Below the pieces are notes generated by a model. It did not search any database and was not told the DNA's origin. It saw nothing but the letters and a program-made list of their open reading frames with translations. A program made the position numbers and the translations under genes. A stretch of 61,318 nt of DNA from Lachnospiraceae bacterium (GTDB lineage Bacteria > Bacillota > Clostridia > Lachnospirales > Lachnospiraceae): contig JAFUGL010000024.1 of NCBI GenBank assembly GCA_017469405.1, forward strand, positions 1 to 61,318. Direction: 5' to 3'. Of the stretch, positions 30,154-49,707 are shown piece after piece. How positions within the stretch are numbered: position 1 is the stretch's first letter; every line of letters starts with the position of its first letter.

Positions 30154-31872
30154 ATGCGTTTAAGTAGTGGTAGAAAAAAGATACGTATAGGTGACTTGCT
30201 TGTTGAAGCCGGAGCTATTACAGCGGAAGAGCTTGAAGAGGCGATTGCCTATCAGAAAGAAAATGGGGGCAAACTTGGTACTGTTCTTGTAAATCAGGGT
30301 TTCATAAGTCAGGAACTTCTTATTACAGTACTTACAACTCAGATGGGTATAGACTTCATAGAGCTTAAAGCATGTAAGCTGGATGATGATATACTCAAGC
30401 TGGTTCCGGAAAATCTTGTTAACAAATATAAAGCTATTCCAATCGGTTATGATGAAAATAATCCTAATATTTTAAAGGTCGCAATGGTTGATCCTATGGA
30501 TCTTAACGCTATAGATGATATCGGTATAGCAACCAATACCCAGGTAGAACCTATGCTTGCCATGGAAGATGACATGAATGAAACCATAGGTAAGTACTTT
30601 GGTAATGCACAGGCTATGGAGGCTGCGGAGCAGTATCGTAAGGAACGTGAATCGGATTTGCTCTCAGAAGCCGAAGAAGAAGCGTTAAATGAGGATATCG
30701 AGAATTCACCTATCGTTCTTTTGGTTAAACAGATTATAGAGGGTGGAGTCAGACAGAGAGCATCTGATATACATATTGAACCGCTTGAATCAAGTGTTCG
30801 TGTCAGATACCGTATAGATGGTGCGTTAAAACAGGTTATGTCATATGATTATTCGCTTCTTTCAGCAATTAGTGCCCGTATCAAAATCATAGGTGGTATG
30901 GATATCGCAGAAAAGAGAAAACCTCAGGATGGTCGTATTACCATTATGGTAGACAGAAGGGAGTTTGATGTCCGTGTTTCCATTCTTCCGACTGTATATG
31001 GAGAAAAGACAGTTATGAGACTTACTTCCAAGGACGGTCTTACAAAACCTAAGAGCGCACTTGGATTTGGACCTCAGGAACTTAAGGTATTCGATGGTAT
31101 ACTGAGTAACCCGCATGGAATCATTCTTGTTACCGGACCTACAGGTTCCGGAAAATCAACTACACTTTATACATCTTTAAGTGAGCTTAATACTGAGGAT
31201 GTTAATATAATAACAGTAGAAGACCCTGTCGAGGCAAATATAGACGGTATAAATCAGGTTCAGGTTAATGTTAAAGCGGAACTTACATTTGCAGCTGCAC
31301 TTCGTTCTATCCTCCGTCAGGACCCGGATATTATAATGATAGGAGAGATCCGTGATGGTGAGACTGCACAGATTGCCGTACAGGCGGCTATCACGGGACA
31401 CTTGGTTGTATCTACACTCCATACTAACTCTGCTGCATCTACGGTTACGCGTATCATAGATATGGGAATTGAACCTTATGTTGCCGGCGACGCGCTGGTT
31501 GGTGTTATTGCACAGAGACTTGTCAGAAGACTTTGCAATTCCTGCAAGCAGCCGAGACTTGCCGAAGATGATGAAAAGATTATTCTTGGTGTAGAACCTG
31601 ACGATGATACTGTAGTTTATGAACCGGTTGGATGTCCTCTTTGCGGTGATACCGGATACTCCGGACGTATTGGTGTATACGAGATGATGCCTGTTTCAAA
31701 GGAACTTCAGGCGGTTATCGCCAGAGGTTCAACAGCTGATGTAATAGAAAAGCAGGCTCTTTCAGAGGGTATGCTTACACTTAAGATGGGTGCTGCTAAG
31801 CACGTGCTTTCAGGAATTACTTCATTAGCGGAGATGAAGAAGATTACTTATGAGACCGGTGATGAGTACTAA
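30154..31872 (+). CDS. pilB: Type IV pilus extension ATPase PilB
   Basis: The 572-residue protein has an MshEN-type N-terminal domain (IGDLLVEAGAITAEELEEA), then the secretion-ATPase core. The core shows DIHIEP, the Walker A motif GPTGSGKST at about 328-336, the Asp box (ITVEDPVE), Walker B (DPDIIMIGEIRD) and the His box (GHLVVSTLHTN). The C-terminal part carries a zinc-binding tetracysteine set (CNSC and CPLC), as in PilB/GspE. It powers pilin polymerisation at the inner face of the membrane. It heads a locus of twelve co-directional pilus genes ending at 49707. Confidence 0.95.
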   Translation: MRLSSGRKKIRIGDLLVEAGAITAEELEEAIAYQKENGGKLGTVLVNQGFISQELLITVLTTQMGIDFIELKACKLDDDILKLVPENLVNKYKAIPIGYDENNPNILKVAMVDPMDLNAIDDIGIATNTQVEPMLAMEDDMNETIGKYFGNAQAMEAAEQYRKERESDLLSEAEEEALNEDIENSPIVLLVKQIIEGGVRQRASDIHIEPLESSVRVRYRIDGALKQVMSYDYSLLSAISARIKIIGGMDIAEKRKPQDGRITIMVDRREFDVRVSILPTVYGEKTVMRLTSKDGLTKPKSALGFGPQELKVFDGILSNPHGIILVTGPTGSGKSTTLYTSLSELNTEDVNIITVEDPVEANIDGINQVQVNVKAELTFAAALRSILRQDPDIIMIGEIRDGETAQIAVQAAITGHLVVSTLHTNSAASTVTRIIDMGIEPYVAGDALVGVIAQRLVRRLCNSCKQPRLAEDDEKIILGVEPDDDTVVYEPVGCPLCGDTGYSGRIGVYEMMPVSKELQAVIARGSTADVIEKQALSEGMLTLKMGAAKHVLSGITSLAEMKKITYETGDEY

Positions 31873-31899
31873 AATATTTAAATAAAAGGAGACTATATA

Positions 31900-32952
31900 A
31901 TGTTAGATATGAAGGAACTGCTTGCATTTGCAGTAGAACAAAATGCATCCGACGTACACTTGGCTTGTGGCATACCACCGAAGCTTCGTATAAATGGTAA
32001 ACTTACCGAAGTTGAGGTGCCGCCTCTTACACCTGCTGATGCAGCTGAGGCGATTGGATCCACAATGCATGAGAGACATAAGGCTATACTTAAAGAAAGA
32101 GGAGAGGTCGACTTCTCATTTGCAGCAGCAGAAACCGGACGTTTTCGTGTAAACGTTTTTATGGACAGAGGAAATATGGCGGCTGCATACAGAAAGGTTG
32201 ATACTCAGATTCCAAGACCGGATATGCTTGGTATACCTGATTCGGTTGTACAATTATATAAGAAGAAAAGAGGACTTGTACTTGTAACGGGACCTACAGG
32301 TTCAGGTAAGTCAACAACACTTGCTTCTATTATTAATAAGGCGAATGAAAATCTTACCGATCACATCATTACACTTGAGGATCCTATAGAGTATGTACAT
32401 AAACATAAAAAGTCGGTTGTAAATCAGCGTGAGATAGGAATGGATACGCTTAGTTATGCAAATGCCTTAAGAGCTGCTCTTCGTGAGGATCCTGATATAA
32501 TCCTCGTAGGAGAGATGCGTGACCTTGAGACTATATCAACTGCCATAACCGCAGCTGAAACCGGTCACTTGGTTTTCTCGACACTTCATACAATCGGTGC
32601 TGCTTCGACTATCGACCGTATCGTCGATGTATTCCCACCTCATCAGCAGCAGCAGACAAGAATTCAGCTTTCTATGGTTCTTGAAGGCGTTATCTCTCAG
32701 TCGCTTATACCAACTGCTGATGGTAACGGACGAGTAGCTGCTTTCGAGGTTATGCTTGCTAATCCTGCTATCCGAAGCCTTATAAGAGAAGCAAAGACTC
32801 ACCAGATACAGTCAACTATTCAGACAAGCAGACAGTCGGGCATGGTAACCATGGATGATTTCATAATGGAATTATACATAGGTGGCGTAATTACTAGAGA
32901 TAATGCACTGATTTATGCACAGGATCAGGTTGCAATGAAGAAACAAATGTAG
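31900..32952 (+). CDS. pilT: Type IV pilus retraction ATPase PilT
   Basis: The 350-residue protein has no MshEN domain and shows the PilT pattern: ASDVHLACGIPP at the N-terminus, Walker A GPTGSGKST at about 131, LEDPIEYVHKHK, Walker B DPDIILVGEMRD, and the GHLVFSTLHT His box. The C-terminal AIRSLIREAKTHQI is the conserved retraction motif region of PilT (AIRNLIRE). Its presence argues for a dynamic, retractable pilus rather than a static secretion pseudopilus. Confidence 0.95.
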   Translation: MLDMKELLAFAVEQNASDVHLACGIPPKLRINGKLTEVEVPPLTPADAAEAIGSTMHERHKAILKERGEVDFSFAAAETGRFRVNVFMDRGNMAAAYRKVDTQIPRPDMLGIPDSVVQLYKKKRGLVLVTGPTGSGKSTTLASIINKANENLTDHIITLEDPIEYVHKHKKSVVNQREIGMDTLSYANALRAALREDPDIILVGEMRDLETISTAITAAETGHLVFSTLHTIGAASTIDRIVDVFPPHQQQQTRIQLSMVLEGVISQSLIPTADGNGRVAAFEVMLANPAIRSLIREAKTHQIQSTIQTSRQSGMVTMDDFIMELYIGGVITRDNALIYAQDQVAMKKQM

Positions 32953-32998
32953 TTTTTTGTGCAATATTAACAAAAAAACAAAAAATTATTCAATATTA

Positions 32999-33027
32999 TT
33001 GAAAAAGTAGACATAATATTATATACT
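32999..33027 (+). promoter_or_regulatory. Putative internal promoter before pilC
   Basis: TTGAAA at 32999-33004 and TATACT at 33022-33027 are separated by 17 bases in the 139-base gap between pilT and pilC. This could give the platform protein and major pilin extra transcription. Confidence 0.55.
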
Positions 33028-33091: not shown

Positions 33092-34294
33092 ATGGCACAG
33101 TATATATGCAAGGTCATGGATCAAAACGGCAAGAGCAAAAGCCTGACCGTTGAAGCTGCTGGCGAAGATAAGGCCAGAGAGAAACTAAAGTCCGAAGGAT
33201 ATATGATACAGGACGTTAAGGAAAAAGGTGCTAAAGGCGCTAAGAAAGGAAAAAAAGTTAAGGATAAAGATTTAGCTGTATTTTGTAAGCAGTTTGTATC
33301 AGTTCTTAATGCCGGTGTTACTGTTATCACAGCTCTTGATATGATGGCAGAGCAGATGGACAATAAAACTCTTCAGCAAGGCTTAAGAGATGCTCAGGCT
33401 TATGTTCAAAAGGGTGGAACGCTTGCAGATGCATTTAAACTTAATCCGAAGATATTCCCACCTATACTTGTTAATATGACTGCAGCAGGTGAGATGTCAG
33501 GTAATCTTGAGACTGCGTTTGAAAGACTTACGACGCACTTCGAAAAGAACAATAAATTAAAGTCAAAGATAAAGGGTGCTATGACATATCCTATAATCAT
33601 ACTTATAGTAGTTTTGGCGGTAGTAGTAGTCCTTCTTTGTACGGTTATACCACAGTTTGCAGATATGTTTGCCGACATGGGCGCAGAACTTCCGGCAGCG
33701 ACACAGATGTTGGTTAACTTGAGTCAATTTATGATACATAAGTGGTACATTGTTATATTGATAGTAGTTGCAATTATTGCTGCATTTAAGCTCTTTGGCA
33801 AGACAGAAGTTGGTTCAACAGTATATGCAAATATAGCTATTAAGGCTCCGCTTTTTGGTAATCTTACCATTAAGTCTGCAGCAGCAAGCTTTTCAAGAAC
33901 ACTTAGTACTCTTATGGCATCAGGTATACCTCTTCTTGATGCAATTGAGCAGGTTGCTAAGATGCAGAACAATAAGATCATAAGAGAAGGCCTTATGGAT
34001 GCAAAAGTTCAGGTTGCTAAAGGTTTACCACTTTCCAAGCCGATAAGAGATATGGAACTTTTCCCACCTATGCTTCCGCAGATGATTAAGATAGGTGAAG
34101 AGACCGGTAATATTGAAGACATGATGGATAAAGTTGCAGATTATTATGAAATGGAAGTTGAAAATGCAACTGATGCTCTTACAGCTGCTATGGAGCCGAT
34201 GGTTATCGTCCTTATGGCTGTTGTAGTTGGTGGTATAGTAATTGCGATTTACTCACCTATGCTTGGTATGTACGACGCAATTGATAATTATTAA
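33092..34294 (+). CDS. pilC: Type IV pilus inner-membrane platform protein PilC
   Basis: The 400-residue GspF/PilC-family protein begins with a short domain (YICKVMDQNGK). Two homologous cytoplasmic T2SSF domains follow, each ending in membrane helices (first at about 165-190 with TYPIIILIVVLAVVVV; second near the C-terminus with MEPMVIVLMAVVVGG). The GEMSGNLE and GEETGNIEDM motifs are the paired conserved turns of the two domains. It connects the ATPases to the growing pilus. Confidence 0.93.
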   Translation: MAQYICKVMDQNGKSKSLTVEAAGEDKAREKLKSEGYMIQDVKEKGAKGAKKGKKVKDKDLAVFCKQFVSVLNAGVTVITALDMMAEQMDNKTLQQGLRDAQAYVQKGGTLADAFKLNPKIFPPILVNMTAAGEMSGNLETAFERLTTHFEKNNKLKSKIKGAMTYPIIILIVVLAVVVVLLCTVIPQFADMFADMGAELPAATQMLVNLSQFMIHKWYIVILIVVAIIAAFKLFGKTEVGSTVYANIAIKAPLFGNLTIKSAAASFSRTLSTLMASGIPLLDAIEQVAKMQNNKIIREGLMDAKVQVAKGLPLSKPIRDMELFPPMLPQMIKIGEETGNIEDMMDKVADYYEMEVENATDALTAAMEPMVIVLMAVVVGGIVIAIYSPMLGMYDAIDNY

Positions 34295-34325
34295 AACGGA
34301 TATTCATCGTCAGGCGAGGATGGCG

Positions 34326-34379: not shown

Positions 34380-34895
34380 ATGAAGAAGATGAACAACAAA
34401 GGTTTCTCATTGGTTGAGCTTATCATCGTTATAGCTATCATGGCTATACTTGCTGGTGCTATAGCTCCTGCACTTATCAGATACATTGATAAGTCAAGAA
34501 AGTCTAACGACGTTTCTAGTGGTAAGACTATTAAGACAGCAGTTGAGACTGCTATGGGTACTGAGGATGCTTACGAGCAGCTTACTGCAGCTGGTACTGG
34601 TTCAGTATTAACTATTAAGCCAGGTGAGACAAGTGCTTCAAACGGTGTTACACTTACTACTGGTGGTTCAGGCGTTACTGCAGATACTAGAGATGAGATC
34701 TTCCAGAACATTGGTGAGAAGACTCCAAAGATTAAGTATAAGAAGAACAACGCAACTAACTTCTATGTACTTGTATCTGGTAAGGGTACTATAAGTGTAT
34801 GGATCGGTTCAGGCGCTCCTGGAATCTCACAGACAGGTACTAAGGGAACAAACTGCTGGCAGTTAGCTCCAGAGCTTGACAAAGAGTATCAGTAA
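34380..34895 (+). CDS. pilA: Type IV major pilin (PilA)
   Basis: The 171-residue prepilin has a short basic leader, MKKMNNKG, cleaved before Phe9. The N-methylation helix FSLVELIIVIAIMAIL has the canonical Glu at mature position 5, and a second half helix ends IRYIDKSRKS. The globular domain is rich in Thr, Gly and Ser, with a single Cys near the C-terminus, so the usual disulfide loop is absent. Codon use leans on AAG, AAC, GGT and ACT more than neighbouring genes, as expected for very high expression. Its position between PilC and PilD, with a hairpin behind it, supports the major-pilin call. Confidence 0.9.
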   Translation: MKKMNNKGFSLVELIIVIAIMAILAGAIAPALIRYIDKSRKSNDVSSGKTIKTAVETAMGTEDAYEQLTAAGTGSVLTIKPGETSASNGVTLTTGGSGVTADTRDEIFQNIGEKTPKIKYKKNNATNFYVLVSGKGTISVWIGSGAPGISQTGTKGTNCWQLAPELDKEYQ

Positions 34896-35002: not shown

Positions 35003-35788
35003 ATGAATATAGATATAGAAATTGGAGAAAAAATCCTTTTTTCTGTGGTTTTTGGACTATATGGCATAGTCATAGGAAGCTTTCTGAATGTTCTTATATT
35101 AAGAACACCAATAAAAGAAAGCATAACCTTCAAACGCTCGCATTGTATGAGTTGTGGTCATACACTTGCGTGGTATGACTTATTTCCATTATTTAGTTAT
35201 TTGTTTTTGGGTGGAAAGTGCAGATATTGTAAAGCACATATTTCTTGTCAATATCCTATTGTTGAAGGAGCGAATGGTATTCTATATATAATTCTTTATC
35301 TGTACCATGGCTTAACGATAGAAACAATTCTTTATTGTTTGTGCACTTCAGCTTTATTGTCATTGAGCGTCATAGATGCTCGTACACGGGAGATACCCGT
35401 TGGATTTAATATTTTTATATTTATTTTAGGACTGATTAGGCTTTTAACAGACTTAAGTCATTGGAGCCAGTATGTAATCGGTTTTTTTGCGGTCAGCGGT
35501 TTTTTGTTTCTTCTTATCCTTATTACCAAAGGAAGAGGCATGGGCGGAGGAGATATGAAACTCATGGCAGCAACCGGCTTACTATTGGGCTGGAAGCTTA
35601 ATATTTTAGCATTTTTGCTGGGATGTGTACTGGCATCAGTTATACATCTTACGATGATGGCTATTGAGAAAGCGGATAGATATATGTCCTTTGGACCGTA
35701 TCTTTCGGCAGGAATTTATATAGCAATGATATGGGGTGAACAGCTTGTAAGCTGGTACCTGAGTATGTGGGCTTTTAAGTCCTTATAA
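35003..35788 (+). CDS. pilD: Prepilin peptidase / N-methyltransferase PilD
   Basis: The 261-residue membrane protein has GSFLNVLILRTP at the N-terminus. Two CxxC pairs in the first cytoplasmic loop (CMSCGH and CRYCKAH) form the zinc motif of the methyltransferase domain. The aspartyl protease residues lie in VIDARTREIP and GGGDMKLMAATG. About seven membrane helices are visible. It should remove leader peptides from all the prepilins of this locus and methylate their first residue. Confidence 0.95.
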   Translation: MNIDIEIGEKILFSVVFGLYGIVIGSFLNVLILRTPIKESITFKRSHCMSCGHTLAWYDLFPLFSYLFLGGKCRYCKAHISCQYPIVEGANGILYIILYLYHGLTIETILYCLCTSALLSLSVIDARTREIPVGFNIFIFILGLIRLLTDLSHWSQYVIGFFAVSGFLFLLILITKGRGMGGGDMKLMAATGLLLGWKLNILAFLLGCVLASVIHLTMMAIEKADRYMSFGPYLSAGIYIAMIWGEQLVSWYLSMWAFKSL

Positions 35789-35823: not shown

Positions 35824-37449
35824 ATGGCAAAAAACGGTAAGGTGTTATCAATTGATATCACAAATGAAAGTATTACAATTATTGAATTGACTGCTTCAGC
35901 TAAGAAGCAGACCTACATTCACAATGTTATCATCTTTGAAACTCCTGAAGATGCTTATGAAGATGGAGTTATCAAGGAACCAGACAAGATTGCTGCAGCA
36001 ATAAGAGATCAGCTGGCGGCAAGAGGAATATCTAACAGAAATGCTATCTTTGTATTATCATCTACCAAGATAGTTAACAGAGAAGTAGTTATTCCATTTG
36101 TAAAAGAGAATAAAATCAGAGGAATCATAAACGCAAACTCATCAGAGTATTTCCCTGTAAATATAGAGGATTATGTGGTTTCTCATTCGGTACTTGAGAC
36201 AGTTACAGACGCAGAAGGCAACAAGCAGTTAAGAGTTCTTGCTGTTGCAGCTCCTTCACAGATGGTTAAGTCTTATTATGATCTTGGAACAAGAGCAGGA
36301 CTTAATGTAGTATCTCTTGACTACATTGGTAACGCAATGCTTCAGCTCATCAAGACTCAGACTACAGCAAGTACAACCACAATGGTAATCCAGTTAGGAA
36401 GTGAGTCAACAGTACTTAATATAGTACAGGGTGACAACCTCCTTCTTCAAAGAACAGTACCTCATGGTACAAACCCTGTTGTAAATGTAGTTATGGATGA
36501 AAAAGGTGTTGATGCTACAACAGCTATGACACTTCTTCAGAATGACAGACTTATAACAGTTGATTTTGACGACAATGAAACAACAGGTGCATTTAGATAT
36601 TTGATTAACAATATTGGACGTGTAATGGACTTCTATGCATCAAAGAATCCTGATAAGCCTATTGAGGATGTATTCCTTACAGGTGATGGAGCACTTATAA
36701 GAGGTATAGATGGTCTCTTTAAAGTTCAGTTAAATGTAAATACAAGAATCATGGACAGCTTATATAATATTAAGTTTGATCCAAGCATAGATTTAAAGGT
36801 TTATAACCCGGTATATCTTGTTACTCCTATCGGTGCAGCTTTTGCTCCTATGGACTTTGTTCCACTTGATGCTTCAAAGGCAAAGGGAGATGGCTCAGGA
36901 AATGGTGCAGTGATAGCAAGTGCTGCTGTATTTGCTGTAGCAGTTATAGCAGCTGCAATTATGGCATTTATGTCAATTAAAGCTAAAAACGATGCACAAT
37001 CCAAGAAAGAGCAGTTGGAACAGGATATTGCGCGTATAAGCGATATCGAACAGATTGTAAATGAAATGAATGCTGCACAGATGAGATATACAGATGTAGC
37101 TACAATGTACAATACTACATACAGCTTAAATGAAAATGCAAGAACATTTATAAGCCAGCTTGAAGCAAAGATTCCTACTAATGTTATAATTTCAAGCTTT
37201 ACCAGCACTGCTGAAAACATTATAATTCCTGCAGTATCAACCAGCTGGGATGGTGTTGCAGACTTTATTATACAGCTCAAGTCAATTGATTGCATATCTG
37301 ATGCATATGTATCAAGCGTTACGAAGACAGTTTCCGAAACTGGAGACGTTACTTTCAACTTTACTGCAACAGCAGTATATGTTGACACAAGAACAGCAGA
37401 AGATCTTGGTGTTATAGCAGATGATGCAGCAACACAGGAAGCTGAATAA
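35824..37449 (+). CDS. PilM-PilN fusion protein of the type IV pilus
   Basis: The 541-residue protein combines two proteins that are normally separate. Residues 1 to about 345 are an actin-like PilM domain (VLSIDITNESITIIEL, MVIQLGSESTVLNIVQGD, DVFLTGDGALIRGIDG). After a short linker, a membrane helix at about 362-384 is followed by a coiled coil (KAKNDAQSKKEQLEQDIARI) and a PilN-like external domain to the end (FISQLEAKIPTNVIISSF). In canonical systems the cytoplasmic tail of PilN binds PilM, so the fusion makes that contact permanent. PilO is encoded immediately downstream, as expected. PilM would sit in the cytoplasm and PilN outside. Confidence 0.85.
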   Translation: MAKNGKVLSIDITNESITIIELTASAKKQTYIHNVIIFETPEDAYEDGVIKEPDKIAAAIRDQLAARGISNRNAIFVLSSTKIVNREVVIPFVKENKIRGIINANSSEYFPVNIEDYVVSHSVLETVTDAEGNKQLRVLAVAAPSQMVKSYYDLGTRAGLNVVSLDYIGNAMLQLIKTQTTASTTTMVIQLGSESTVLNIVQGDNLLLQRTVPHGTNPVVNVVMDEKGVDATTAMTLLQNDRLITVDFDDNETTGAFRYLINNIGRVMDFYASKNPDKPIEDVFLTGDGALIRGIDGLFKVQLNVNTRIMDSLYNIKFDPSIDLKVYNPVYLVTPIGAAFAPMDFVPLDASKAKGDGSGNGAVIASAAVFAVAVIAAAIMAFMSIKAKNDAQSKKEQLEQDIARISDIEQIVNEMNAAQMRYTDVATMYNTTYSLNENARTFISQLEAKIPTNVIISSFTSTAENIIIPAVSTSWDGVADFIIQLKSIDCISDAYVSSVTKTVSETGDVTFNFTATAVYVDTRTAEDLGVIADDAATQEAE

Positions 37450-37467
37450 TAAAGGGGGTTGATGAAT

Positions 37468-40099: not shown

Positions 40100-43000
40100 T
40101 TGAAGAAAATAAAAAATTTATTTAAGAAACTAAAAAATAATGGCTCCAGTACTATAATGGTCGTTGTTTCTATGGCATTTATAGGTATAATTGTCGGAGC
40201 ACTCCTTACTGCGGCAGGTTATGCATACAGACTTAGAATGCAGGACGTCAATGCAAGAGACAACTTCTATTATGTTGAGCAGGCGATGAATGAAATATAT
40301 TCGGGCGTTGGTTCTGAGACTCTTAAAAATATGCAGGATGCTTATGTTTATACCGTGGAAAATATGGTATATTACGATATTTCCACTCAGACTTATATGA
40401 AGAGAAGTGATGAAGATGCTGAAAAGATGTTCAAAGAAAAATTTATGGACAATGTCAGCGGAAATGATTTCTTCCAGAAGGCTAATATAGCTACGTCATT
40501 GAGCAAATATATTTCAGATCCTAATATTGTACTTGATCCTACAAGGATTGATGTTATAGTAACAAAAGATGAAAATGGCAAGGTTGAGCTTATAACTATC
40601 AAGAATGTTACTCTTACAAGAACAGTAAAGTATAATAAGACAGTTGGTGATTATAAGCAGACAATTTCAACAGACATTGAGATTGGCAATCCTGATTTTA
40701 CAGTTTTGTTCAATTCAACAAGTGGAGGAAGTCCTAATATATTCAATTTCTCACTTGTAGCAGATATGGGTGTTGAGGTTGATTCTACCATGCCTGTGAC
40801 TATAGCTGGTAATATTTATGCAGCAGCTGATTATTATAATAAAGATTATAATAAGAGTACTTATAAAACTTATAGTGGTGTTAATGAAACAACTCCAAAG
40901 GACGAAGATCAGAAATTTGAAAAAACATATACTGACGGAACCGGAGAGAGTGTAGATTTTAGTTATCAGCATGGAAGTGTTACTTCAAGAACTTATGATA
41001 CTAAAAATACTTTAGATAATACATACTATAATATGCAGTCTACAATTATGAACACTACCAATATAGCTGATGTAACTAACAGACAGTACTTTGATGGTGT
41101 TAATAAGAGAAGTATGTATTCAGGATTCTTTGTTGATGGAACAAATGTTTCAATTCTTGCAGATATGGTTATTGTACCGGGATCTATATCAGTTATGGAT
41201 AATGGATTCCTTACCATATACGGAAAGAATGGTATGGCAATTAATGAAGCAGAGGTTTGGGCAGATAACTTTATTCTTGGAGGATATAGTACAAAGGTTC
41301 CAACAACAGAAAAAGATGATGATGGAAATACTATATTCTTATATAATGGTTCAAAAGCAGATATCCGTGCAAATATGTACGTGAGAGATGATACTGAAAT
41401 CAATTCTGTTGGTTCAACATTCAAGCTTCGTGGTAAGTACTACGGATATGGTGACAGTACTTCAAAGGATAGCAGAACTTTTGTACCTACTGTTGATTTG
41501 GAGAATTTCCAGAGAGAATTCCTTCAGTACAATAATAACAGCCTTGTTACCGATGCAAATGGTAAACCTGTTCTTTCAACTGAAAACAGAGGACATTATA
41601 ACAGTAGTGCAATTATCGTAAATGGTGAGAAGTCTACATTGGACTTCAAAGATGTTACTTCAATTTATCTTGCAGGACGTTCATATATTGAACTTTCAAA
41701 AACTGTTGACGTTGCTGAAGATGATGATACTGTAAAAGATTCAGCAGGAAATGTATTGACAAATGTACAGACTATTGAGTTTAATCCTGCTAACAAAACT
41801 ACAAATTCTAATGGAACTGTAGATACTGTATTTATAAGAGATTATAAGACAGGTGAAAGTTTATCATTAAAGTCAAATCAGGTTGCATATATACCAATCC
41901 AGTACACAGGTATTCCTACACCTGCTGTTGCATTGGATGGAAATGTTTCTTTAACTGATGATTGGGGTAAAAGAGCATATGATGCAGACTTACATCCTGC
42001 TTTAAGAGGAAGCGCATTATTTGAAGAGTACTTCCCGGCAGCAAGATTTGTAGATGCAAAAGATAAATATGCTATACCATGTATCATGCAGGAAGTATCA
42101 GGAAAGAAATATTACTATTATGATTTTGACAGAGCTTACAGATATATAGCAAGTGGTAGTGCTTCATATTATGGTGCGGCAAACAGAAATCCGGTTGCAG
42201 TAAGTACACTTGGTGCAGCTTATTGTGATAACTTTGTTGCTAAGTATCCATCAGCAGAAGCATATGCAGCAAGCTTTATAGAAGATTATGTAGCAGAGTT
42301 AAATGATCCTACAAGCGTAATAAAAGATTATCTTACTGATATAACTGATTATGATGGTTTTGATGCAGGTAATATCATATTACCAAAATCAGATTCAGTA
42401 ATGTACTCAAGTGGTGCTATAACTACAAAAGAAGGTGCAGAATTTAATGTGGCAGTAAAAGATTCAGCAGATCTTTCCACACTCTTTTCTTCATCCAATT
42501 ACAATGTTTCAGGATTAAATCCTTCTGCAACAGAGTATTCGGATGGACTTGAGAAAGAATATAATTATGTTAAGTGGAATCTTGGTCACTTTGATGATGC
42601 CTCATCTTTGGAGAAGAGATACATTGATGATCTTGTTACAGATTCAACAGGAAAGTTTAGTGAAGCTTCAATCACACCTATAAATAAATTCCTTAATTTT
42701 GATAAGATTAATTCTGTTAGAAAACTTAATCTTTCATCAGGATATTATGTTATTGCTTCTAATGCAAATGTAAATGTTGATGAAACCGGAGTTGTTAAGG
42801 GAATTATTTTAACAAAGGGTGATGTTACATTTGGTGAAAACGTTACAGGATTTGAAGGCTTGATAGTTTCAGGTGGTAAGATTTATATTTCGAACCGTAT
42901 GCAGACTATCAATGCAAGTGCTGAGATTTGTAGAGCAGTACTTAGAGAGTGCCAGTTATCCGGTGATGATGACTGCCAGCAGTTCCTTAAGCTTTTCAAG

Positions 43001-43117
43001 GGATATGAGGGATCAGAAATCATAGAAAATATAGAAGATTCTGATGCAAAGACAATTGACACTATTGACTATTCAGACGTTGTTAGATTCAACAACTGGA
43101 TGAAGAACGTAGAATAG
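40100..43117 (+). CDS. Giant GspK/PilX-like minor pilin (1005 aa)
   Basis: The N-terminus, a basic leader of about 15 residues followed by GSSTIMVVVSMAFIGIIVGALL, is a prepilin-like signal in which position 5 of the mature protein is not Glu. This is known for GspK and PilX proteins, which sit at the tip of the (pseudo)pilus. The ectodomain of more than 950 residues is Tyr-, Asp- and Ser-rich. It has a repetitive strand region near the C-terminus (GDVTFGENVTGFEGLIVSGG) that looks like a beta-solenoid, then three Cys around ICRAVLRECQ. It starts with TTG, right after the previous stop codon. Size is several times that of typical PilX. Confidence 0.75.
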   Translation: MKKIKNLFKKLKNNGSSTIMVVVSMAFIGIIVGALLTAAGYAYRLRMQDVNARDNFYYVEQAMNEIYSGVGSETLKNMQDAYVYTVENMVYYDISTQTYMKRSDEDAEKMFKEKFMDNVSGNDFFQKANIATSLSKYISDPNIVLDPTRIDVIVTKDENGKVELITIKNVTLTRTVKYNKTVGDYKQTISTDIEIGNPDFTVLFNSTSGGSPNIFNFSLVADMGVEVDSTMPVTIAGNIYAAADYYNKDYNKSTYKTYSGVNETTPKDEDQKFEKTYTDGTGESVDFSYQHGSVTSRTYDTKNTLDNTYYNMQSTIMNTTNIADVTNRQYFDGVNKRSMYSGFFVDGTNVSILADMVIVPGSISVMDNGFLTIYGKNGMAINEAEVWADNFILGGYSTKVPTTEKDDDGNTIFLYNGSKADIRANMYVRDDTEINSVGSTFKLRGKYYGYGDSTSKDSRTFVPTVDLENFQREFLQYNNNSLVTDANGKPVLSTENRGHYNSSAIIVNGEKSTLDFKDVTSIYLAGRSYIELSKTVDVAEDDDTVKDSAGNVLTNVQTIEFNPANKTTNSNGTVDTVFIRDYKTGESLSLKSNQVAYIPIQYTGIPTPAVALDGNVSLTDDWGKRAYDADLHPALRGSALFEEYFPAARFVDAKDKYAIPCIMQEVSGKKYYYYDFDRAYRYIASGSASYYGAANRNPVAVSTLGAAYCDNFVAKYPSAEAYAASFIEDYVAELNDPTSVIKDYLTDITDYDGFDAGNIILPKSDSVMYSSGAITTKEGAEFNVAVKDSADLSTLFSSSNYNVSGLNPSATEYSDGLEKEYNYVKWNLGHFDDASSLEKRYIDDLVTDSTGKFSEASITPINKFLNFDKINSVRKLNLSSGYYVIASNANVNVDETGVVKGIILTKGDVTFGENVTGFEGLIVSGGKIYISNRMQTINASAEICRAVLRECQLSGDDDCQQFLKLFKGYEGSEIIENIEDSDAKTIDTIDYSDVVRFNNWMKNVE

Positions 43118-43128
43118 AGGTGGTGTTG

Positions 43129-43755
43129 ATGATAAAGATTAAAGAGAGAATTAAAAAAAGCTTAAAAGATAATAAAGGTTTTTCTTTAACAGAGCTTATA
43201 ATTGTTATAGCAATAATACTTTTAATGACGGCGGCTTCTTTTGTAACACTTAGTATTGTGCATGGTGCAAGAGCTAAAGATGCAGCAAGTTCATTTGAAA
43301 ATTCACTTGCCGAAGTTATAAGCCTATCTAAGAATAATGGTGTCGATCAAAATGACAATGGTGGAAGCGATGGCGAAGAGGATAAGTACACAATAGGCCT
43401 CAAGATTTATAAGATTGGTCAGAAGTATTATCTTCAAAAGTGCATTTGCAAAAAAAGTGCAACCGGAGTATATACTGATGCAGGATTCACATCTAGTGAT
43501 GCATACATTAAATCTATAAATGAAAGTTCCGGAAAGGGAATATGTTTATCAGCATATGTTGATATAAAGTTTTACGATTTAGATGGTAATGATGCCAGTG
43601 CGGATTCTTACATCATAGCTTTTAACAAAAAAGGTGAATGTGTACTCGGATATGGTAAGTATGAATTTAAAAAGAGTAACACAGGTAACACGATAGTTAC
43701 AGTTTCTGTTAATAAAAACGGAGGCTATATATCAAGTAAATATCAAGGTAGATAA
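43129..43755 (+). CDS. Minor pilin, GspH/FimT-like
   Basis: The 208-residue prepilin has a long basic leader (IKERIKKSLKDNKG), then FSLTELIIVIAIILLM with the conserved Glu5. Length and a compact beta-rich C-terminal domain (VTVSVNKNGGYISSKY) fit GspH/FimT-type minor pilins. ATG at 43129 is preferred over upstream GTG and TTG codons because the GAGGTGG site lies just before it. It is 11 bases downstream of the giant minor pilin. Confidence 0.82.
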   Translation: MIKIKERIKKSLKDNKGFSLTELIIVIAIILLMTAASFVTLSIVHGARAKDAASSFENSLAEVISLSKNNGVDQNDNGGSDGEEDKYTIGLKIYKIGQKYYLQKCICKKSATGVYTDAGFTSSDAYIKSINESSGKGICLSAYVDIKFYDLDGNDASADSYIIAFNKKGECVLGYGKYEFKKSNTGNTIVTVSVNKNGGYISSKYQGR

Positions 43756-43768: not shown

Positions 43769-44629
43769 TTGACGAAAAAAATTAAAAGCAATAACGGTTT
43801 CACCCTTATAGAATTGGTTATTGCTCTAGCGATGCTTGCCTTTATCATGACGGCAGTAAGTGCACTTATGGGAAGTAGTGTACTGAGTTTTAGAAAGTCA
43901 AAGGCAAACATAAGTGTACAAAACTCTGCACAAGCAACATATGATAAGATGTCAGATGTTATTATGCAGGCAAAAAGGGTAGTAATTTATGGTTATGAAA
44001 TCAGTTCAGATGTCGATTTTGAACACCTTAAGCCGGGAGATGATGCTTCAGGAACTTTAACACCTAAGTATTATGTATCTAATCAGGCAACTAAGAAAGA
44101 ACTTACTGATTCCGGTATTAATGAAGCTAATATAACTGTTGTTAGTTCCGTAAGTAAAGATACAAAGATATATGTTAAGAAAATGATTATTGATATTTCT
44201 GTACCGATTGAGGAAATAACAGCTGTAGATAGCAGTTATACGGAAGCAACAACAGGCGTTGAGGTATTTGATGCATTACATACGGGTAAAAAGGTAAAGA
44301 TTAATAAAATAGAAGACGGCGTGTATGATGCAAACGATACATTGAGAAATACATTTACATTTGATAAAAATTCTATGTATTATGAACGTCAATATGCTCT
44401 TCAAACCGGCAAGAACGATTTAATGGGTGCTAACCCTGAAAATAACCTGTATACAAATGTTTTCAATTATGCGACACTTGGATCAGATAGTGTTACAGGA
44501 TGTATAGCAACGATTGATTCAAAGAATGGTGCCATAGGGTTAAATTTATATTTTTATGATAAAAATATGAGATTTTCCACAGATGGTATGGTGAAACTTA
44601 GAAACTCAGATGTTTTAGAGAATAATTAA
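43769..44629 (+). CDS. Minor pilin, PilW/GspJ-like
   Basis: The 286-residue protein has the leader MTKKIKSNNG and the helix FTLIELVIALAMLAFIM with Glu5. Then comes SSVLSFRKSKANISVQNSA and the DKMSDVIMQAKRVVIYG stretch, typical of GspJ/PilW proteins. With the H-like, I-like and K-like proteins encoded just upstream it completes a set comparable to the four tip pseudopilins of type II secretion. It starts with TTG; AAGGAG lies 9 bases before it. Confidence 0.82.
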   Translation: MTKKIKSNNGFTLIELVIALAMLAFIMTAVSALMGSSVLSFRKSKANISVQNSAQATYDKMSDVIMQAKRVVIYGYEISSDVDFEHLKPGDDASGTLTPKYYVSNQATKKELTDSGINEANITVVSSVSKDTKIYVKKMIIDISVPIEEITAVDSSYTEATTGVEVFDALHTGKKVKINKIEDGVYDANDTLRNTFTFDKNSMYYERQYALQTGKNDLMGANPENNLYTNVFNYATLGSDSVTGCIATIDSKNGAIGLNLYFYDKNMRFSTDGMVKLRNSDVLENN

Positions 44630-44649: not shown

Positions 44650-47600
44650 ATGAAAAAAAACATGAAACTCAAAGTAACTGCATTAGTTGCAATGCTTTTT
44701 ATGGCTATTGCCGTAACCTTCTTATCATTCTCTCATGCGGATGAGGAATTGGAAGATGATAATATATTAAAAGCAGCTGATACAGCAGCTGATGTAGGTA
44801 CTAAGACCAATATTGATTACATAATTGCTAATTCAAATACTACAGATCCTGATATTGATCCGTATTATAATATTATAGAGATATATTCGGATGCTACACC
44901 TTCAGGTCTTAAGGATTTTGTTGAAAATAAAGGTTTTGAAAATTATGTAATTAATGGTTATTCAACGCTTGGTGAAGCGATGAAGACTGGTATGGTAAAG
45001 TATACAGCTTATCAGACCAAATCAATTACAAATGCCAGTACAGACGAACTTATAGCGATATCAAATGCAGACCTTATATATGTAAATCAGGGAACTACTC
45101 CATTTAGTGCCACAAATGATATATGTGAGAGTTTGTATGATATACTTCATACCTATGCTGTAGGTGATTATAAGCCTGTTATTATTAACAGTGAGAGTAA
45201 ATCCGGTAGCAACAGTGGTGGAAATACAACTACTCAGGAAACTATGGCTACTCTTGCTACAGATGCATTTTCAGCAGGTTCGTACTATTATACTTTTGCA
45301 TGGGATACAAGTAAGCAAACTGTTACTCAGTTCCTTGCACATAAGGAAGGTTCCATGTACCTTGGTATAAATGGTAGAACACAGAACTCAAAGGGAAAGT
45401 GGACTACGCTTGTTAAGGATGAAGATACAAAACTAATGGCTAAGTTCCTTATTTTAAGTAGTTCAGGAACAAGCACAAGCAGTATGAAGAGTGATCTTTT
45501 CTCTACATCATTTACTACTGCTAATGAGTTTGATCCTACCGGTTATCATGCAAATGGAGCTGTAGATGAATATGCAGTACCGACAGAGATAAATTCAAAG
45601 CTTTATAGTATTTCAGGAACAGTTATTGAAAATGGTATTTATAATGGTAAGTATACTACTCCTGATGTTATTCAGTTAGATGAAGCTAAGATTTCAGATA
45701 TCGATGATGGTACAATTGATCTTGGAAATTATGATTTTATATTAATTGATGAAACTGTTACAGGCAATATTTCGAATGATGTATATAATAAGTTTTCAGG
45801 TGCGATGTATGCAAGTATAAGTATAGTTTATCCTGCAAGTTTGAAGTCATCAACTTCAACAACTACAGGAACTACAGTTACAAACGTTCAGGCATACAAC
45901 TATTTAGAGCTTTATTATATGGTTGCAACATCCGACAATATAGCAAGATATGACAATGTAATGGTTACAAGTAAGAAAGAGCTTGATACGATTATGGCAG
46001 GTGGAGAAACAGGCGCCGGAGCTATAGCAAGCCTTATCAATAAATCTACTTACAGAGGTATAGGTGGTAAGGGAAGCTCTTCAAATATGTATACAGTACT
46101 TGAGATTCAGCCTTGTTATCCTATAGATGAAGATTTGGCAACAAGACAGGGTGGAAAGTATTACACTATACCTGCTAACGTGCTCAATGATGTTGACAAA
46201 GATACTCTTTCAAGAGATGAAGATGGCAATATCAATGTAGAGTATTATGATTGGGAAATCAGCAAGAAAAAGATAGCTGATGCAGTAGGTATAGATGAGA
46301 GTAAGATTCAGATAGTTCATATGTCAACTGAAGAGCTTGCAGCAAGCAAGCAAACAATTCTTGGTACTTATGACCTTATATATGTTGGTGGTAACAAATC
46401 AGCACTTAAAGAACCTCAGAATTGGAGAAACCTTACAGGACTTATGAACTGGGGATATATGAGTACTTCAGGTGCAGCACTTGAAAATTATAAGTATTTC
46501 CCTATATATACAATGTACACACATAACGGTGATATGGTTGCTGTTTCCGTATCTTCACTTGGATATTCAGGTGGTGATGTTAAATCAGGAAACCCGGCAG
46601 CAGAAGTATACTTAAATGGTTCATATCAGTCATCATTCTCACTTTTAAATGGTAATGATATATCATATGACAGATTGGGTGAACTTAATGCTTATGTTGA
46701 AGCAGGTATGCCGGTCATCGTTGAAAAGAGTGTTACAGATGCATATAATTCGGTTATTAATAATCCGGATGGAAATGAATATCTTCAGAATTCAATCGAT
46801 CCTGATAGTAATATGAGGAAGTTCCTTGATACATGTTATGCTAGGAAGACTACAGATGGAAGTACTTCTCCTGCTAAGGCTAGTGATCCAAAGAATACTG
46901 TATTATGGGGCATAACTAATAGTTCTGATGATGTTACATTTACTGATTATGATAAGGTTAACAGCCTTGTAAAAGGTTCTACATCAAGACCTAAGCTTGT
47001 AGTAACTTCCATGCCGGTAGAATATAACTACTATGATGCAAGTACAAGACTTAGTGAAGGAACTCTTAACTTCTCTTATGAGGTTGAAGGTTCAACAAAT
47101 TATACAACAAAGCTTCTTGTTGATGATGATGGAGACTGTGTATTTGAAACTGAGATTTCAAGTGATCTTGGTGATATAACAATAACTCCAAATAGTGTTA
47201 AGTGTACACTGTCAGATAAGTTCTTTGGACCTATATATTGGAAGCTTGAAGTAACTGATAAAACTTCAGGTATGACAGCATATACAACCGGAATATCTTA
47301 TATTAAGAATAAGACAGGTCAAAAACAGACCGTAAGAGTTCTTCAGATTATGCCGGGTGCAGCTGTAGAAGAGACTAACTGGGCAGGTACAAAACTTGTA
47401 TCTTCTCATGGTGAGGGTGCACAGGGTTCAAATGCACTTTACTTCTGTCCTATATGTCAGCAGGCTTATCAGAGACTTGAGTATTATCCACTTGCCAACA
47501 GTACCGATCCGGTTGGTATAAGATATAGTGGAACAGGTGCTTATAATGAAAGTACAAATACTACTCCTAGTACAGGTCATACAACAAGTAATGATCCATA

Positions 47601-49707
47601 TCTTGGACAGCATGAGCATATCTTTGGTCTTCCAAAGTATGACAGTAATATGACATTGGGAACATATACCGGTGTTGATGACTGGTCTACTAACCTTGCA
47701 GATGATGTTGGAGATCTTTATGATTTCGATCTTGATATCATGCTTAGAGGTGAGTTTGAAGAGTATTCAAGAAATATAGCAGCAGCTTATGATTTTTCAA
47801 GTATGAGTGCTGCCGATAAGACAGCTAAGATTAATGCATTTACAATTGATGCATCTGATCCTGATTATAATGAATGGTCAGCTCTTACAACTGATGATGC
47901 AAAGCTTAAGTTTATAACTAAGAGAGAGTATCAGCAGTTGGCAAACGGTGCATATCAGAATTATTTATTAGCAAAGGCTGATACTGAGACAGCTATCCCT
48001 GCACTTGAAACAGCACTTAATACTGCTATAGCAAGTAACTCAGGTGGATATGCTACAGATTTAAATATTGTTTTAAGGACAAGAAGATATTCAGATATCT
48101 TCTCAGCAGTTGGAAATGGAGGAAGCTTTAGATATACTTATCCATGGAATACTGATCAATTAAATGTTGCAAATGCATATTTTGACTACAGAGATCTGAA
48201 AGAGATTGAGGTTACATATCATAAGCAATATAAAGAATATAGCAGATATGCTTATCCTGATAACTGGTTGCTTGGATGTTATGATATGATAATCATCGGA
48301 CCATCAGATGACTTTGCAGGCGATGATATGACAGATGCTACCGCACTTGCAGACCTTATTGATTATATGGCTAATGATGGAAGCTTACTTTTGTTCCATG
48401 ATACATTGACAGCATCAAGAAATTCCGGTTCTCATGTACTTACCTCTACTCTTAGAGATTACTTCGGTATGAACAGAAACAGAGGACTTTCGCTTGGATC
48501 AAGTGCAGCAACCGGTATGTATTATCTGCCATATGCATCATCTAATCCAGACAGATACTTTATGACTAACCTTTCATATAAACCTACAACAGATACCGGA
48601 AGGTATGCTTCATGGGTTAATGATATGAAGGCAGGATTTAATGGATTTGGACCTGGCAGATACTTGACAGATGTTGTTTATACAGACTCATTTGCAACAA
48701 CTGATTATGGTACAAACGGTGCAAGCGGTGGTTCACCTTATAAGTATGGACAGCAGTATTGGGAGCTTGCTACAACATATATGAAGAGTAGTAATGCTAA
48801 CTTCGTTCCTGATTTAAAGGCAAAGAACCAGTATGGTACAGATAAGGCAAGTCAGAATAATAAGGGTATAGTAACACAATATCCGTTTACTCTTAGTGAT
48901 GACCTTAATATATCACCTACACATGCTCAGCATTATGCTCTTGAGCTTGATGCTACCAAGATGACCGTATGGTATTCACTTGCAGGTGGTAACAATGGTG
49001 CAGCTAATGGAAAAGCAGCTTCAGCTTCATCCATGTATGCAGCATCAAGAAATGATGGTATGGATAACTACTTCATCTATTCATACGGAAATGTAAACTA
49101 CTGTGGTGCCGGACATTCGAAGGTAACAGGTGTTTACAAGGATAATAATGATGAACGTAGACTTTACATCAATATAATTGTTAACTCAGTTAAGAATTCA
49201 GTTAACCAGCCTGGTATTACAGTTTACGATTATAAGACTGAGAAGAAGAAGAGTAAGGATGGAACAGACTACTTAATTGAAGTTAAGGATGTTGATTCAT
49301 GGCCTGAATTCAGTTTCAGTGCAACAGTTGATACAAGTGAAGCAGGTAATAAGCTTGAAAGAGTAAGAATTTACTATGATTTAGATTATCTTACTGTAAC
49401 AGGTAACAAGGATGCTTATGTAAATAATCAATATCATATATTGATTGCAGATATGACTAAGGATAAGGATGGTAATCCTCTTAAGTCAGGAACTATATAT
49501 GATGTTGGTAAAGAATTATCAGCATTACAGCTTAAAGCAGAATACTTTGAACCGTACAATCAAGAATATACTTATATAGTAATTGAGGCTACAGATTCAA
49601 AGGGCAATATAGCTTACCAGCGTATTAAGATTAAGCTGTTACCATACTTGTTCGAAATGACTCAAAATAATATCAACATAGTTTTAGATATGATTGATAA
49701 AGCATAA
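44650..49707 (+). CDS. Giant secreted protein of the pilus locus (1685 aa)
   Basis: A signal peptide spans residues 1-30 with likely cleavage after SHA. There is no transmembrane tail, LPxTG or cell-wall repeat. A two-part pattern recurs along the protein: an opening strand (NIIEIYS at 74, VLEIQP at 483, VLQIMP at 897), and a later strand with the form [YA]D-hydrophobic-G (ADLIYVN at 140, YDFILID at 361, YDLIYVGG at 574, YDMIIIG at 1211). This suggests several related alpha/beta domains, perhaps of the DUF5057 or GATase-like type. Cys933, Cys936, His988 and His990 could bind a metal. The C-terminal 130 residues look like an Ig-like sandwich. As the last gene of the locus, a PilY1-like tip or adhesin role is plausible but unproven. 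Confidence 0.7.
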   Translation: MKKNMKLKVTALVAMLFMAIAVTFLSFSHADEELEDDNILKAADTAADVGTKTNIDYIIANSNTTDPDIDPYYNIIEIYSDATPSGLKDFVENKGFENYVINGYSTLGEAMKTGMVKYTAYQTKSITNASTDELIAISNADLIYVNQGTTPFSATNDICESLYDILHTYAVGDYKPVIINSESKSGSNSGGNTTTQETMATLATDAFSAGSYYYTFAWDTSKQTVTQFLAHKEGSMYLGINGRTQNSKGKWTTLVKDEDTKLMAKFLILSSSGTSTSSMKSDLFSTSFTTANEFDPTGYHANGAVDEYAVPTEINSKLYSISGTVIENGIYNGKYTTPDVIQLDEAKISDIDDGTIDLGNYDFILIDETVTGNISNDVYNKFSGAMYASISIVYPASLKSSTSTTTGTTVTNVQAYNYLELYYMVATSDNIARYDNVMVTSKKELDTIMAGGETGAGAIASLINKSTYRGIGGKGSSSNMYTVLEIQPCYPIDEDLATRQGGKYYTIPANVLNDVDKDTLSRDEDGNINVEYYDWEISKKKIADAVGIDESKIQIVHMSTEELAASKQTILGTYDLIYVGGNKSALKEPQNWRNLTGLMNWGYMSTSGAALENYKYFPIYTMYTHNGDMVAVSVSSLGYSGGDVKSGNPAAEVYLNGSYQSSFSLLNGNDISYDRLGELNAYVEAGMPVIVEKSVTDAYNSVINNPDGNEYLQNSIDPDSNMRKFLDTCYARKTTDGSTSPAKASDPKNTVLWGITNSSDDVTFTDYDKVNSLVKGSTSRPKLVVTSMPVEYNYYDASTRLSEGTLNFSYEVEGSTNYTTKLLVDDDGDCVFETEISSDLGDITITPNSVKCTLSDKFFGPIYWKLEVTDKTSGMTAYTTGISYIKNKTGQKQTVRVLQIMPGAAVEETNWAGTKLVSSHGEGAQGSNALYFCPICQQAYQRLEYYPLANSTDPVGIRYSGTGAYNESTNTTPSTGHTTSNDPYLGQHEHIFGLPKYDSNMTLGTYTGVDDWSTNLADDVGDLYDFDLDIMLRGEFEEYSRNIAAAYDFSSMSAADKTAKINAFTIDASDPDYNEWSALTTDDAKLKFITKREYQQLANGAYQNYLLAKADTETAIPALETALNTAIASNSGGYATDLNIVLRTRRYSDIFSAVGNGGSFRYTYPWNTDQLNVANAYFDYRDLKEIEVTYHKQYKEYSRYAYPDNWLLGCYDMIIIGPSDDFAGDDMTDATALADLIDYMANDGSLLLFHDTLTASRNSGSHVLTSTLRDYFGMNRNRGLSLGSSAATGMYYLPYASSNPDRYFMTNLSYKPTTDTGRYASWVNDMKAGFNGFGPGRYLTDVVYTDSFATTDYGTNGASGGSPYKYGQQYWELATTYMKSSNANFVPDLKAKNQYGTDKASQNNKGIVTQYPFTLSDDLNISPTHAQHYALELDATKMTVWYSLAGGNNGAANGKAASASSMYAASRNDGMDNYFIYSYGNVNYCGAGHSKVTGVYKDNNDERRLYINIIVNSVKNSVNQPGITVYDYKTEKKKSKDGTDYLIEVKDVDSWPEFSFSATVDTSEAGNKLERVRIYYDLDYLTVTGNKDAYVNNQYHILIADMTKDKDGNPLKSGTIYDVGKELSALQLKAEYFEPYNQEYTYIVIEATDSKGNIAYQRIKIKLLPYLFEMTQNNINIVLDMIDKA

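What the first reader, a model, noticed from the sequence alone, without database searches (positions are those of the whole stretch)
30154..49707. A complete type IV pilus locus in a spore-former with giant minor-pilin and secreted components
Twelve co-directional genes encode both ATPases, platform, major pilin, prepilin peptidase, PilM/N/O functions, four minor-pilin-like proteins and a 1,685-residue exported protein. The four minor pilins look like H-, I-, J- and K-type tip proteins of secretion systems. However, the I-like (497 aa) and K-like (1,005 aa) ones are far larger than usual, and the last gene adds a separate giant. Together they could build an unusually large tip structure on a retractable (PilT-containing) Gram-positive pilus. 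The pilus machinery calls are firm; the tip assembly is inferred.
Basis: partly seen in the sequence, partly recalled or inferred. Interest (0 to 1): 0.8.

Follow-up and report, generated by a model that had tools for sequence, protein, structure and literature searches.

The report
Gut-bacterial pilus with giant tip protein
A spore-forming gut bacterium carries a standard grappling-hook pilus gene set that ends in a very large exported protein of unknown function, and related bacteria nearly always keep that protein beside the pilus-tip genes, which suggests a tip adhesin of a kind that Gram-positive pili were thought to lack.

Summary
Twelve co-directional genes at 30154-49707 encode a type IVa pilus: PilB, PilT, PilC, major pilin, PilD, a PilM-N fusion, a PilO-like protein, four minor pilins and a 1,685-aa exported protein, here called G. 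The minor pilins show the HIJK pattern: K lacks Glu5 in 101 of 101 distinct loci, while I, H and J have it in 97, 98 and 98 of 99. The large sizes are normal for this lineage (medians I 513, K 961, G 1,806 aa). G is the uncharacterised Pfam family DUF5057. Among 200 same-family genomes, 43 of 44 with DUF5057 also have K; 98 of 100 distinct fetched loci have exactly two genes between K and G. In five genomes of three other families G also lies in a pilus locus, beside an E5-less K or two genes from it. G has an export signal, no anchor of its own and a confident multidomain fold. My reading is a non-pilin tip protein docked on HIJK that works like PilY1 but shows no sequence relation to it. A paper states that monoderms lack PilY1. 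Tip location is inferred, not shown. The same genome has a second pilus locus with a 4,283-aa prepilin.

The parts
30154..31872 (+). pilB, extension ATPase (572 aa) with N-terminal MshEN domain (c-di-GMP-binding family)
   Evidence: T2SSE E 8e-132, MshEN E 1.6e-15
31900..32952 (+). pilT, retraction ATPase (350 aa)
   Evidence: T2SSE E 1.5e-47; AIRSLIRE seen in the translation (that this marks PilT is recalled)
33092..34294 (+). pilC, platform protein (400 aa)
   Evidence: T2SSF E 3e-61; GspF/PilC models below their cut-offs
34380..34895 (+). major pilin (171 aa)
   Evidence: N_methyl E 4.5e-9; 'major' by position and size
35003..35788 (+). pilD, prepilin peptidase (261 aa)
   Evidence: A24_N_bact E 2e-33, Peptidase_A24 E 3e-20
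35824..37449 (+). PilM-PilN fusion (541 aa)
   Evidence: PilM_2 E 1.3e-27; PilN E 1.4e-4, just under the cut-off
37459..38589 (+). PilO-like protein (376 aa)
   Evidence: position; of 20 aligned members 6 hit PilO and 8 hit T2SSM, weakly
38606..40099 (+). I-like minor pilin (497 aa), Glu5 present
   Evidence: N_methyl; ComGE/PilV weak; Glu5 in 97 of 99 loci
40100..43117 (+). K-like minor pilin (1005 aa) without Glu5; large beta-rich body
   Evidence: 0 of 101 distinct loci have Glu5; AlphaFold2 pLDDT 82.9
43120..43755 (+). H-like minor pilin (211 aa)
   Evidence: N_methyl, GspH E 1.6e-4, below its cut-off
43769..44629 (+). J-like minor pilin (286 aa)
   Evidence: N_methyl; Glu5 in 98 of 99 loci at this position
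44650..49707 (+). G: giant exported non-pilin protein (1,685 aa), DUF5057 family; proposed tip protein
   Evidence: PF16480 E 1.8e-24; single N-terminal hydrophobic segment; synteny
46081..47010 (+). G residues 478-787: alpha/beta domain 2 (VLEIQP...DLIYVGG); domain limits are my reading of the predicted secondary structure
   Evidence: AlphaFold2
47011..47325 (+). G residues 788-892: predicted beta-sandwich (Ig-like) with an acidic loop that is DxNxDG-type in many relatives
   Evidence: Ig-like by the type of Foldseek hits
47326..49230 (+). G residues 893-1527: alpha/beta domain 3 with a helical insert; most conserved stretch is 1478-1517 (GxGH)
48499..48504 (+). insertion hotspot after G residue 1284
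   Evidence: 35 of 57 relatives carry an insert here, median 117, max 333 aa
49267..49650 (+). G residues 1540-1667: C-terminal predicted beta-sandwich

Best explanation
The locus makes a retractable type IVa pilus. Its tip is started by an HIJK complex with the Glu5-less K at the very end. The exported giant G (DUF5057) docks on that complex, caps the filament and carries the binding surfaces, so the pilus can be thrown out, stick by G, and be pulled back by PilT. Shown here: gene content, the Glu5 pattern, the near-obligate linkage of G to K, an export signal without any anchor of its own, a confident multidomain fold for residues 478-1677, and lineage-specific modules in some G and J proteins. 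Inferred: docking on K, tip location, adhesive function and ligand (perhaps glycan; by record titles the relatives are mostly gut and rumen Lachnospiraceae). G works like PilY1/PilC but is not a member of that family by sequence.
For: Linkage in 200 same-family genomes: 43 of 44 DUF5057 genomes have K (G042 counted on a contig-end fragment), 8 have K without DUF5057; Fisher p 2.4e-34, not corrected for relatedness. Order: 98 of 100 distinct fetched loci with K and G have exactly two genes between them (106 of 108 before 8 duplicates are removed). Beyond the family: all five genomes over the cut-off in other families (one f10, three f33, one f195) have G in a pil locus, adjacent to an E5-less K-type gene or, in f10, two genes away. 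K lacks Glu5 in 101 of 101 while I, H and J nearly always have it; PMC10191384 (passages) says the tip complex is capped by the subunit lacking Glu5. G: N-terminal hydrophobic segment in 100 of 101, C-terminal TM in 0, LPxTG in 0, prepilin motif in 0, so something else must hold it. Adhesin-like modules in relatives: insertion hotspot; Listeria-Bacteroides repeats (Flg_new) in two giants of one genome and a sub-cut-off ricin-type lectin hit in another; an ice-binding-like adhesive domain plus Big_2 in one f33 giant; F5/8 type C or Ig domains on 2 of 10 long J pilins scanned. On 88 loci G's distance matrix follows K's most closely (r 0.93; 0.68 given PilM).
Against: No direct evidence of contact or location. 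The distance correlations can come from shared descent: PilO, which is no tip part, also correlates with G (0.90; 0.54 given PilM), and all five tested partners beat 999 of 999 permutations. Of the eight genomes with K but no DUF5057 hit, the giant profile finds a G in three (802, 918, 2,847 aa), a 903-1,024-aa protein that the profile does not match fills the slot in three, one has none and one is cut by a contig end; in seven further fetched loci with weaker K matches no G is found. So G is not needed by every such pilus. Pfam found no adhesive domain in the window's own G, and 8 of 10 long J pilins had no module hit over a cut-off. One over-cut-off DUF5057 protein (L076, 29.3 bits against 27.9) and two sub-cut-off ones (L078, L202) stand without pil genes.
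Confidence: 0.6

Rival explanations
1. G is an exported effector or enzyme that the HIJK-tipped filament helps to release (as TcpF and CofJ bind T4b minor pilins), and it acts away from the pilus.
For: G has no anchor. Its most conserved stretch (residues 1478-1517, 70% identity to the window among 57 relatives) looks like a functional site, and its GxGH motif is kept in the four distant giants checked. Domain 3 hints at a ThuA-like fold in a plausible register (hhalign P 8.5e-4, probability only 24%). TcpF/CofJ precedent: PMC9565799 (passages).
Against: A monoderm needs no pilus to pass an outer membrane. Size, inserted modules and the tight linkage to K fit a structural tip part better. No catalytic family was recognised.
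Confidence: 0.17
2. G is a wall-side gate or guide that lets the pilus pass the thick peptidoglycan, in place of secretin and outer-membrane parts; it stays at the base.
For: Large, multidomain and tightly linked to the pilus; diderm PilY1 is also part of the priming complex in the machine (PMC7541494, abstract).
Against: No sortase motif or TM anchor and no wall-binding domain in the window's G. G's mean pairwise identity is like that of the tip pilins (0.27 over 109 loci, against 0.65 for PilB over 28).
Confidence: 0.1
3. Nothing beyond an ordinary T4aP: G is a surface protein whose gene travels with the operon but has no role in the filament.
For: Some pilus loci of the family lack G.
Against: G is beside or near K in three other families with different gene order or orientation, and 43 of 44 DUF5057 genomes have K.
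Confidence: 0.08

Closest known systems
PilY1/PilC non-pilin tip adhesin of diderm T4aP (Myxococcus, Neisseria, Pseudomonas)
   Same: Very large exported non-pilin protein encoded beside the minor pilins; a conserved part plus variable modules; a possible calcium loop.
   Different: No PilY1 family hit at E 0.01 or better in 28 giants; predicted alpha/beta and beta-sandwich domains instead of the PilY1 propeller (propeller recalled); reported absent in monoderms (PMC9934059, passage).
Streptococcus sanguinis PilABC tip complex
   Same: Monoderm T4aP with an adhesive tip and grafted modules; the long J pilins with F5/8C or Ig domains in two relatives are the same idea.
   Different: Here a four-pilin HIJK-type set is present, and the largest part is not a pilin.
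TcpF and CofJ, exported proteins bound to T4b minor pilins
   Same: Exported, non-pilin, linked to a minor pilin (PMC9565799, passages; TcpF's gene is in the pilus operon by its abstract).
   Different: Smaller (recalled), on type IVb pili; no relation appeared in the solved-structure search with the giant profile.
Clostridium and Paenibacillus T4P loci (C. perfringens, C. difficile, P. thiaminolyticus)
   Same: Clustered pil genes with an MshEN domain on PilB (PMC9765702, passages).
   Different: No DUF5057 giant is mentioned in the passages read; their own loci were not searched by name here.
Pfam PF16480 (DUF5057)
   Same: G is a member over the curated cut-off.
   Different: No function is given and no paper in the library names it; the pilus link is drawn here.

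Membership tests
Type IVa pilus (T4aP) | PilB, PilC, PilD, major pilin | tested here: met
Type IVa pilus (T4aP) | PilM, PilN, PilO subcomplex | tested here: met
   PilM_2 firm, PilN borderline in a fusion; PilO/T2SSM weak and only in relatives
Type IVa pilus (T4aP) | Retraction ATPase PilT | tested here: met
   gene present; retraction itself not testable
HIJK minor-pilin tip complex | Four minor pilins, K without Glu5, the others with it | tested here: met
   Glu5 in K 0 of 101, I 97 of 99, H 98 of 99, J 98 of 99; the H, I and J labels rest on weak profile hits
HIJK minor-pilin tip complex | They form one complex at the tip | not testable with these tools
   no complex prediction available
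PilY1/PilC | PilY1 family domain | tested here: not met
   not among the seven families hit at E 0.01 or better by 28 giants
PilY1/PilC | Exported non-pilin encoded with the minor pilins | tested here: met
PilY1/PilC | Calcium-binding loop | tested here: inconclusive
   D.[DN].DG at one aligned place in 39 of 99 giants (looser form 57 of 99); shuffled segments mean 0.9, max 4, not allowing for relatedness; the window's copy is a variant
PilY1/PilC | Located at the pilus tip and adhesive | not testable with these tools
   needs experiment
DUF5057 (PF16480) | Score over the curated cut-off | tested here: met
   87.3 bits against 27.9
ThuA-like (class-I amidotransferase-like) fold | Recognisable family profile or fold | tested here: inconclusive
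   ThuA E 0.042 in 1 of 28 giants; hhalign probability 24%; no such match among the 50 Foldseek rows shown

The most novel reading that the evidence does not exclude
DUF5057 giants are the non-pilin tip protein of monoderm type IVa pili. They arose apart from PilY1, cap an HIJK complex, and take up lineage-specific modules at a fixed insertion site. Together with the 4,283-aa prepilin of the second pilus in the same genome, this would show that gut Lachnospiraceae have built giant pilus tips in two independent ways.
Probability: 0.5. Interest if true: 0.78.

Novelty: new variant of a known kind. Interest (0 to 1): 0.6.

Why it matters
[quoted passage not shown] A conserved giant next to the tip pilins, found in 44 of 200 sampled genomes of the family, gives a domain of unknown function a testable role and a candidate for how these gut and rumen bacteria hold on to surfaces. 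If true, the non-pilin tip cap arose more than once.

Tried and rejected
Rejected: that the giant sizes are special to this genome. Rejected: PilY1 membership. Not established: a ThuA-like fold of domain 3 and internal repetition of domains 2 and 3 (hhalign P 9.5e-4, probability 22%). Solved-structure searches by sequence gave nothing for G at E 1 and only weak pilin-helix hits for K. Foldseek gave two matches at E 0.001 or better for G, both short (up to 169 alignment columns, TM-score 0.07 by query) and of beta-sandwich type by my reading, and none at that level for K, where weak ice-binding-protein hits appear lower down. Promoter and terminator scans were at chance and were not used. The Rfam scan at the gathering threshold and the tRNA scan found nothing in the window. 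Distance correlations weigh little, because PilO correlates as well.

Full report
What is there. The twelve ORFs are at the stated coordinates and sizes. PilB carries an MshEN domain and PilT is separate. PilC, PilD, the major pilin and the PilM-N fusion are supported by Pfam. The 376-aa protein is PilO-like only through relatives: of 20 aligned members, 6 hit PilO (best E 7.8e-4) and 8 hit T2SSM (best E 2.6e-5). Upstream lie a glycosyltransferase and a polysaccharide-flippase-type gene; downstream lie an M24 peptidase and spoIIIA genes.

Minor pilins. I, H and J have N_methyl hits; K has none. I counted 109 loci including the window; removing 8 that two collections share leaves 101. K never has Glu5; Glu5 is present in 97 of 99 I, 98 of 99 H and 98 of 99 J (by a script that picks the best prepilin-like site). 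In one locus (L156) the gene in the J place is a 1,234-aa exported protein, not a pilin. The H, I and J labels rest on weak NCBIfam hits; K is marked by its missing Glu5. A review read in passages (PMC10191384) says the tip complex is capped by the subunit lacking Glu5.

Sizes. In 108 fetched loci, duplicates included, median lengths are I 513, K 961, J 299 and G 1,806 aa, with ranges 273-687, 703-1,275, 168-1,234 (the upper end is the L156 protein) and 802-2,847. The window's values are ordinary for this lineage.

Linkage of G. G is DUF5057. Of 200 same-family genomes, the window's own included, 44 have it. In the same 200, 63 match the K profile at E 0.001; 50 of them do so at E 1e-60 or better, and G042 has a fragment at a contig end. 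So 43 of 44 DUF5057 genomes have K; the exception, G025, keeps pilB, pilT, pilC and a 652-aa G remnant (L046). Fisher p is 2.4e-34; the genomes are related, so this overstates independence. Of 48 DUF5057 places outside the window genome I fetched 47 (one short contig of G092 was left out): 42 show pil genes beside G, three end at a contig edge (L047, L056, L077) and two have none (L076, L078). Of 68 loci from named genomes, 64 have pilin genes directly upstream and four begin at the contig start. Of 108 loci with K and G, 106 have exactly two genes between them; without duplicates and the window this is 98 of 100.

Beyond the family. In 398 genomes of the phylum, 7 have DUF5057: the window genome, one congener, one more of the family and four others. 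In 291 of the class, 6 have it, among them one new over-cut-off genome (G741) and one below the cut-off (G632). The five over-cut-off genomes of other families all have G in a pil locus. In the three f33 genomes G lies between pilB, which runs the other way, and a minor-pilin trio whose 599-632-aa K-type member is next to G and lacks Glu5. In G741, G follows K directly. In G557 a J-like pilin and a 1,234-aa exported protein lie between K and G. G632 has no pil genes in the 20 kb read. The tool gives these families no names.

Nature of G. In 100 of 101 distinct giants a hydrophobic segment lies in the first 70 residues; none has a C-terminal TM, an LPxTG or a prepilin motif (simple hydropathy and pattern tests). 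AlphaFold2 with 58 sequences gave pLDDT 87.9 and pTM 0.86 for residues 478-1677: an alpha/beta domain, a beta-sandwich, a second alpha/beta domain with a helical insert, and a C-terminal sandwich (limits are mine). Residues 1-477 were not modelled. Foldseek found only short matches, so the alpha/beta parts have no clear solved relative in the rows shown. The best conserved stretch, residues 1478-1517, averages 70% identity to the window among 57 relatives, and GxGH is kept in the four distant giants checked and in the L046 remnant, but not in L076 or L078. Inserts cluster after residue 1284: 35 of 57 relatives, median 117, maximum 333 aa. Modules found in relatives: Listeria-Bacteroides repeats (Flg_new) in the two giants of G039 and a sub-cut-off ricin-lectin hit in L061; an ice-binding-like adhesive domain and Big_2 in one f33 giant. 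Of 28 giants scanned together, no other family than DUF5057 was hit by more than one member at E 0.01. An acidic D.[DN].DG loop stands at one aligned place in 39 of 99 giants (shuffled mean 0.9).

The slot varies. Ten long J pilins (676-1,075 aa) were scanned; one (L037) carries F5/8 type C and one (L039) Ig domains, the other eight showed no such domain (L034 a sub-cut-off CofB_C hit). Of eight genomes with K but no DUF5057 hit, the giant profile finds G in three (802, 918, 2,847 aa); three have a 903-1,024-aa protein in the slot that neither the profile nor Pfam matches; one has nothing there; one is cut by the contig end. Seven more loci with weaker K matches have no G. Machinery is conserved and tip parts are less so: mean pairwise identity PilB 0.65 (28 loci), PilT 0.64 (30), PilM 0.42, K 0.31, G 0.27, J 0.25, I 0.24 (105-109 loci). 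The sets of loci differ, so this is only a rough comparison.

K. AlphaFold2 gave pLDDT 82.9 and pTM 0.74 for all 1,005 aa: a long N-terminal helix, then mostly beta structure with helical inserts. No PDB match reaches E 0.001; ice-binding proteins are among the weak hits. W1000 and N1003 near the C-terminus are invariant in 61 sequences, and the end reads WMKNVE in 25 of 101 with close variants after it. That end is a candidate docking strand; PMC13190605 (abstract) predicts PilX-PilY1 strand complementation in myxobacteria.

Mechanism. I propose HIJK priming with K outermost, G docked on it, extension by PilB (c-di-GMP control is likely from MshEN), adhesion through G and its modules, and retraction by PilT. 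The general cycle follows the T4aP literature (PMC7541494 abstract; PMC10191384 passages; PMC8833165 abstract and part of the introduction). Docking and adhesion of G are inference. Distance matrices of 88 loci tie G most closely to K (0.93), but PilO reaches 0.90, so this is weak support.

Novelty. No paper in the library names DUF5057. Searches for Lachnospiraceae or rumen T4P listed 4 of 4, 20 of 74, 12 of 63 and 1 of 1 papers; none of those listed describes this locus by its title and the start of its abstract. PMC3244431 (passages) surveyed Gram-positive pili and does not use the word Lachnospiraceae in its main text; PMC9765702 (passages) describes a Paenibacillus pil operon. PMC9934059 (passage) says PilC/PilY1 is absent in monoderms.

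Second pilus. The same genome has another T4P locus on contig C46, led by a 4,283-aa protein with a prepilin motif. Its first 800 residues match 31 of 150 same-family genomes, own included, at E 0.001, many only through the pilin helix; 20 other genomes have matching open frames over 1,400 aa. Of six checked, three lie among pil machinery genes (G036, G086, G107), two beside pilin-like genes only (G148, G052), and for G012 no pil gene was recognised in the stretch read.

Noticed in passing
window genome G000 contig C46:17914-30765 (-), L204: A 4,283-aa ORF begins with a prepilin motif (N_methyl E 6.3e-6; GLUG motif E 0.0016, below cut-off) and heads a second T4P locus (K-like 236 aa, 141, 222, 144, D, C, M, O-like, B, T, two pilins). 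It would be one of the largest modular pilins I know of (recalled).
   Followed up: partly
20 same-family genomes, e.g. G036, G086, G107, G148, G052, G012: Relatives of that giant prepilin have open frames of 1,435-4,540 aa; of six checked, three lie among pil machinery genes, two beside pilin-like genes only, one (G012) showed no pil gene in the stretch read.
   Followed up: partly
L046 (G025): Eroded pilus locus: pilB, pilT, pilC beside a 652-aa DUF5057 remnant, with the pilin and M-O genes gone.
   Followed up: no
L076, L078, L202: Proteins of 651-1,209 aa with weak DUF5057 similarity and no pil genes nearby; possible non-pilus cousins.
   Followed up: no
L110, L116, L117, L127, L128, L131, L134, L135, L138 (and L120, cut off) downstream of G: A gene of 1,611-1,772 aa on the opposite strand beside EF-P recurs next to the pilus locus in a subgroup; identity not checked.
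   Followed up: no
window G residues 933-936 and 988-990: A CxxC and a HxH pair (FCPICQ ... GQHEHIFG) are kept in most close relatives; possible metal site.
   Followed up: no
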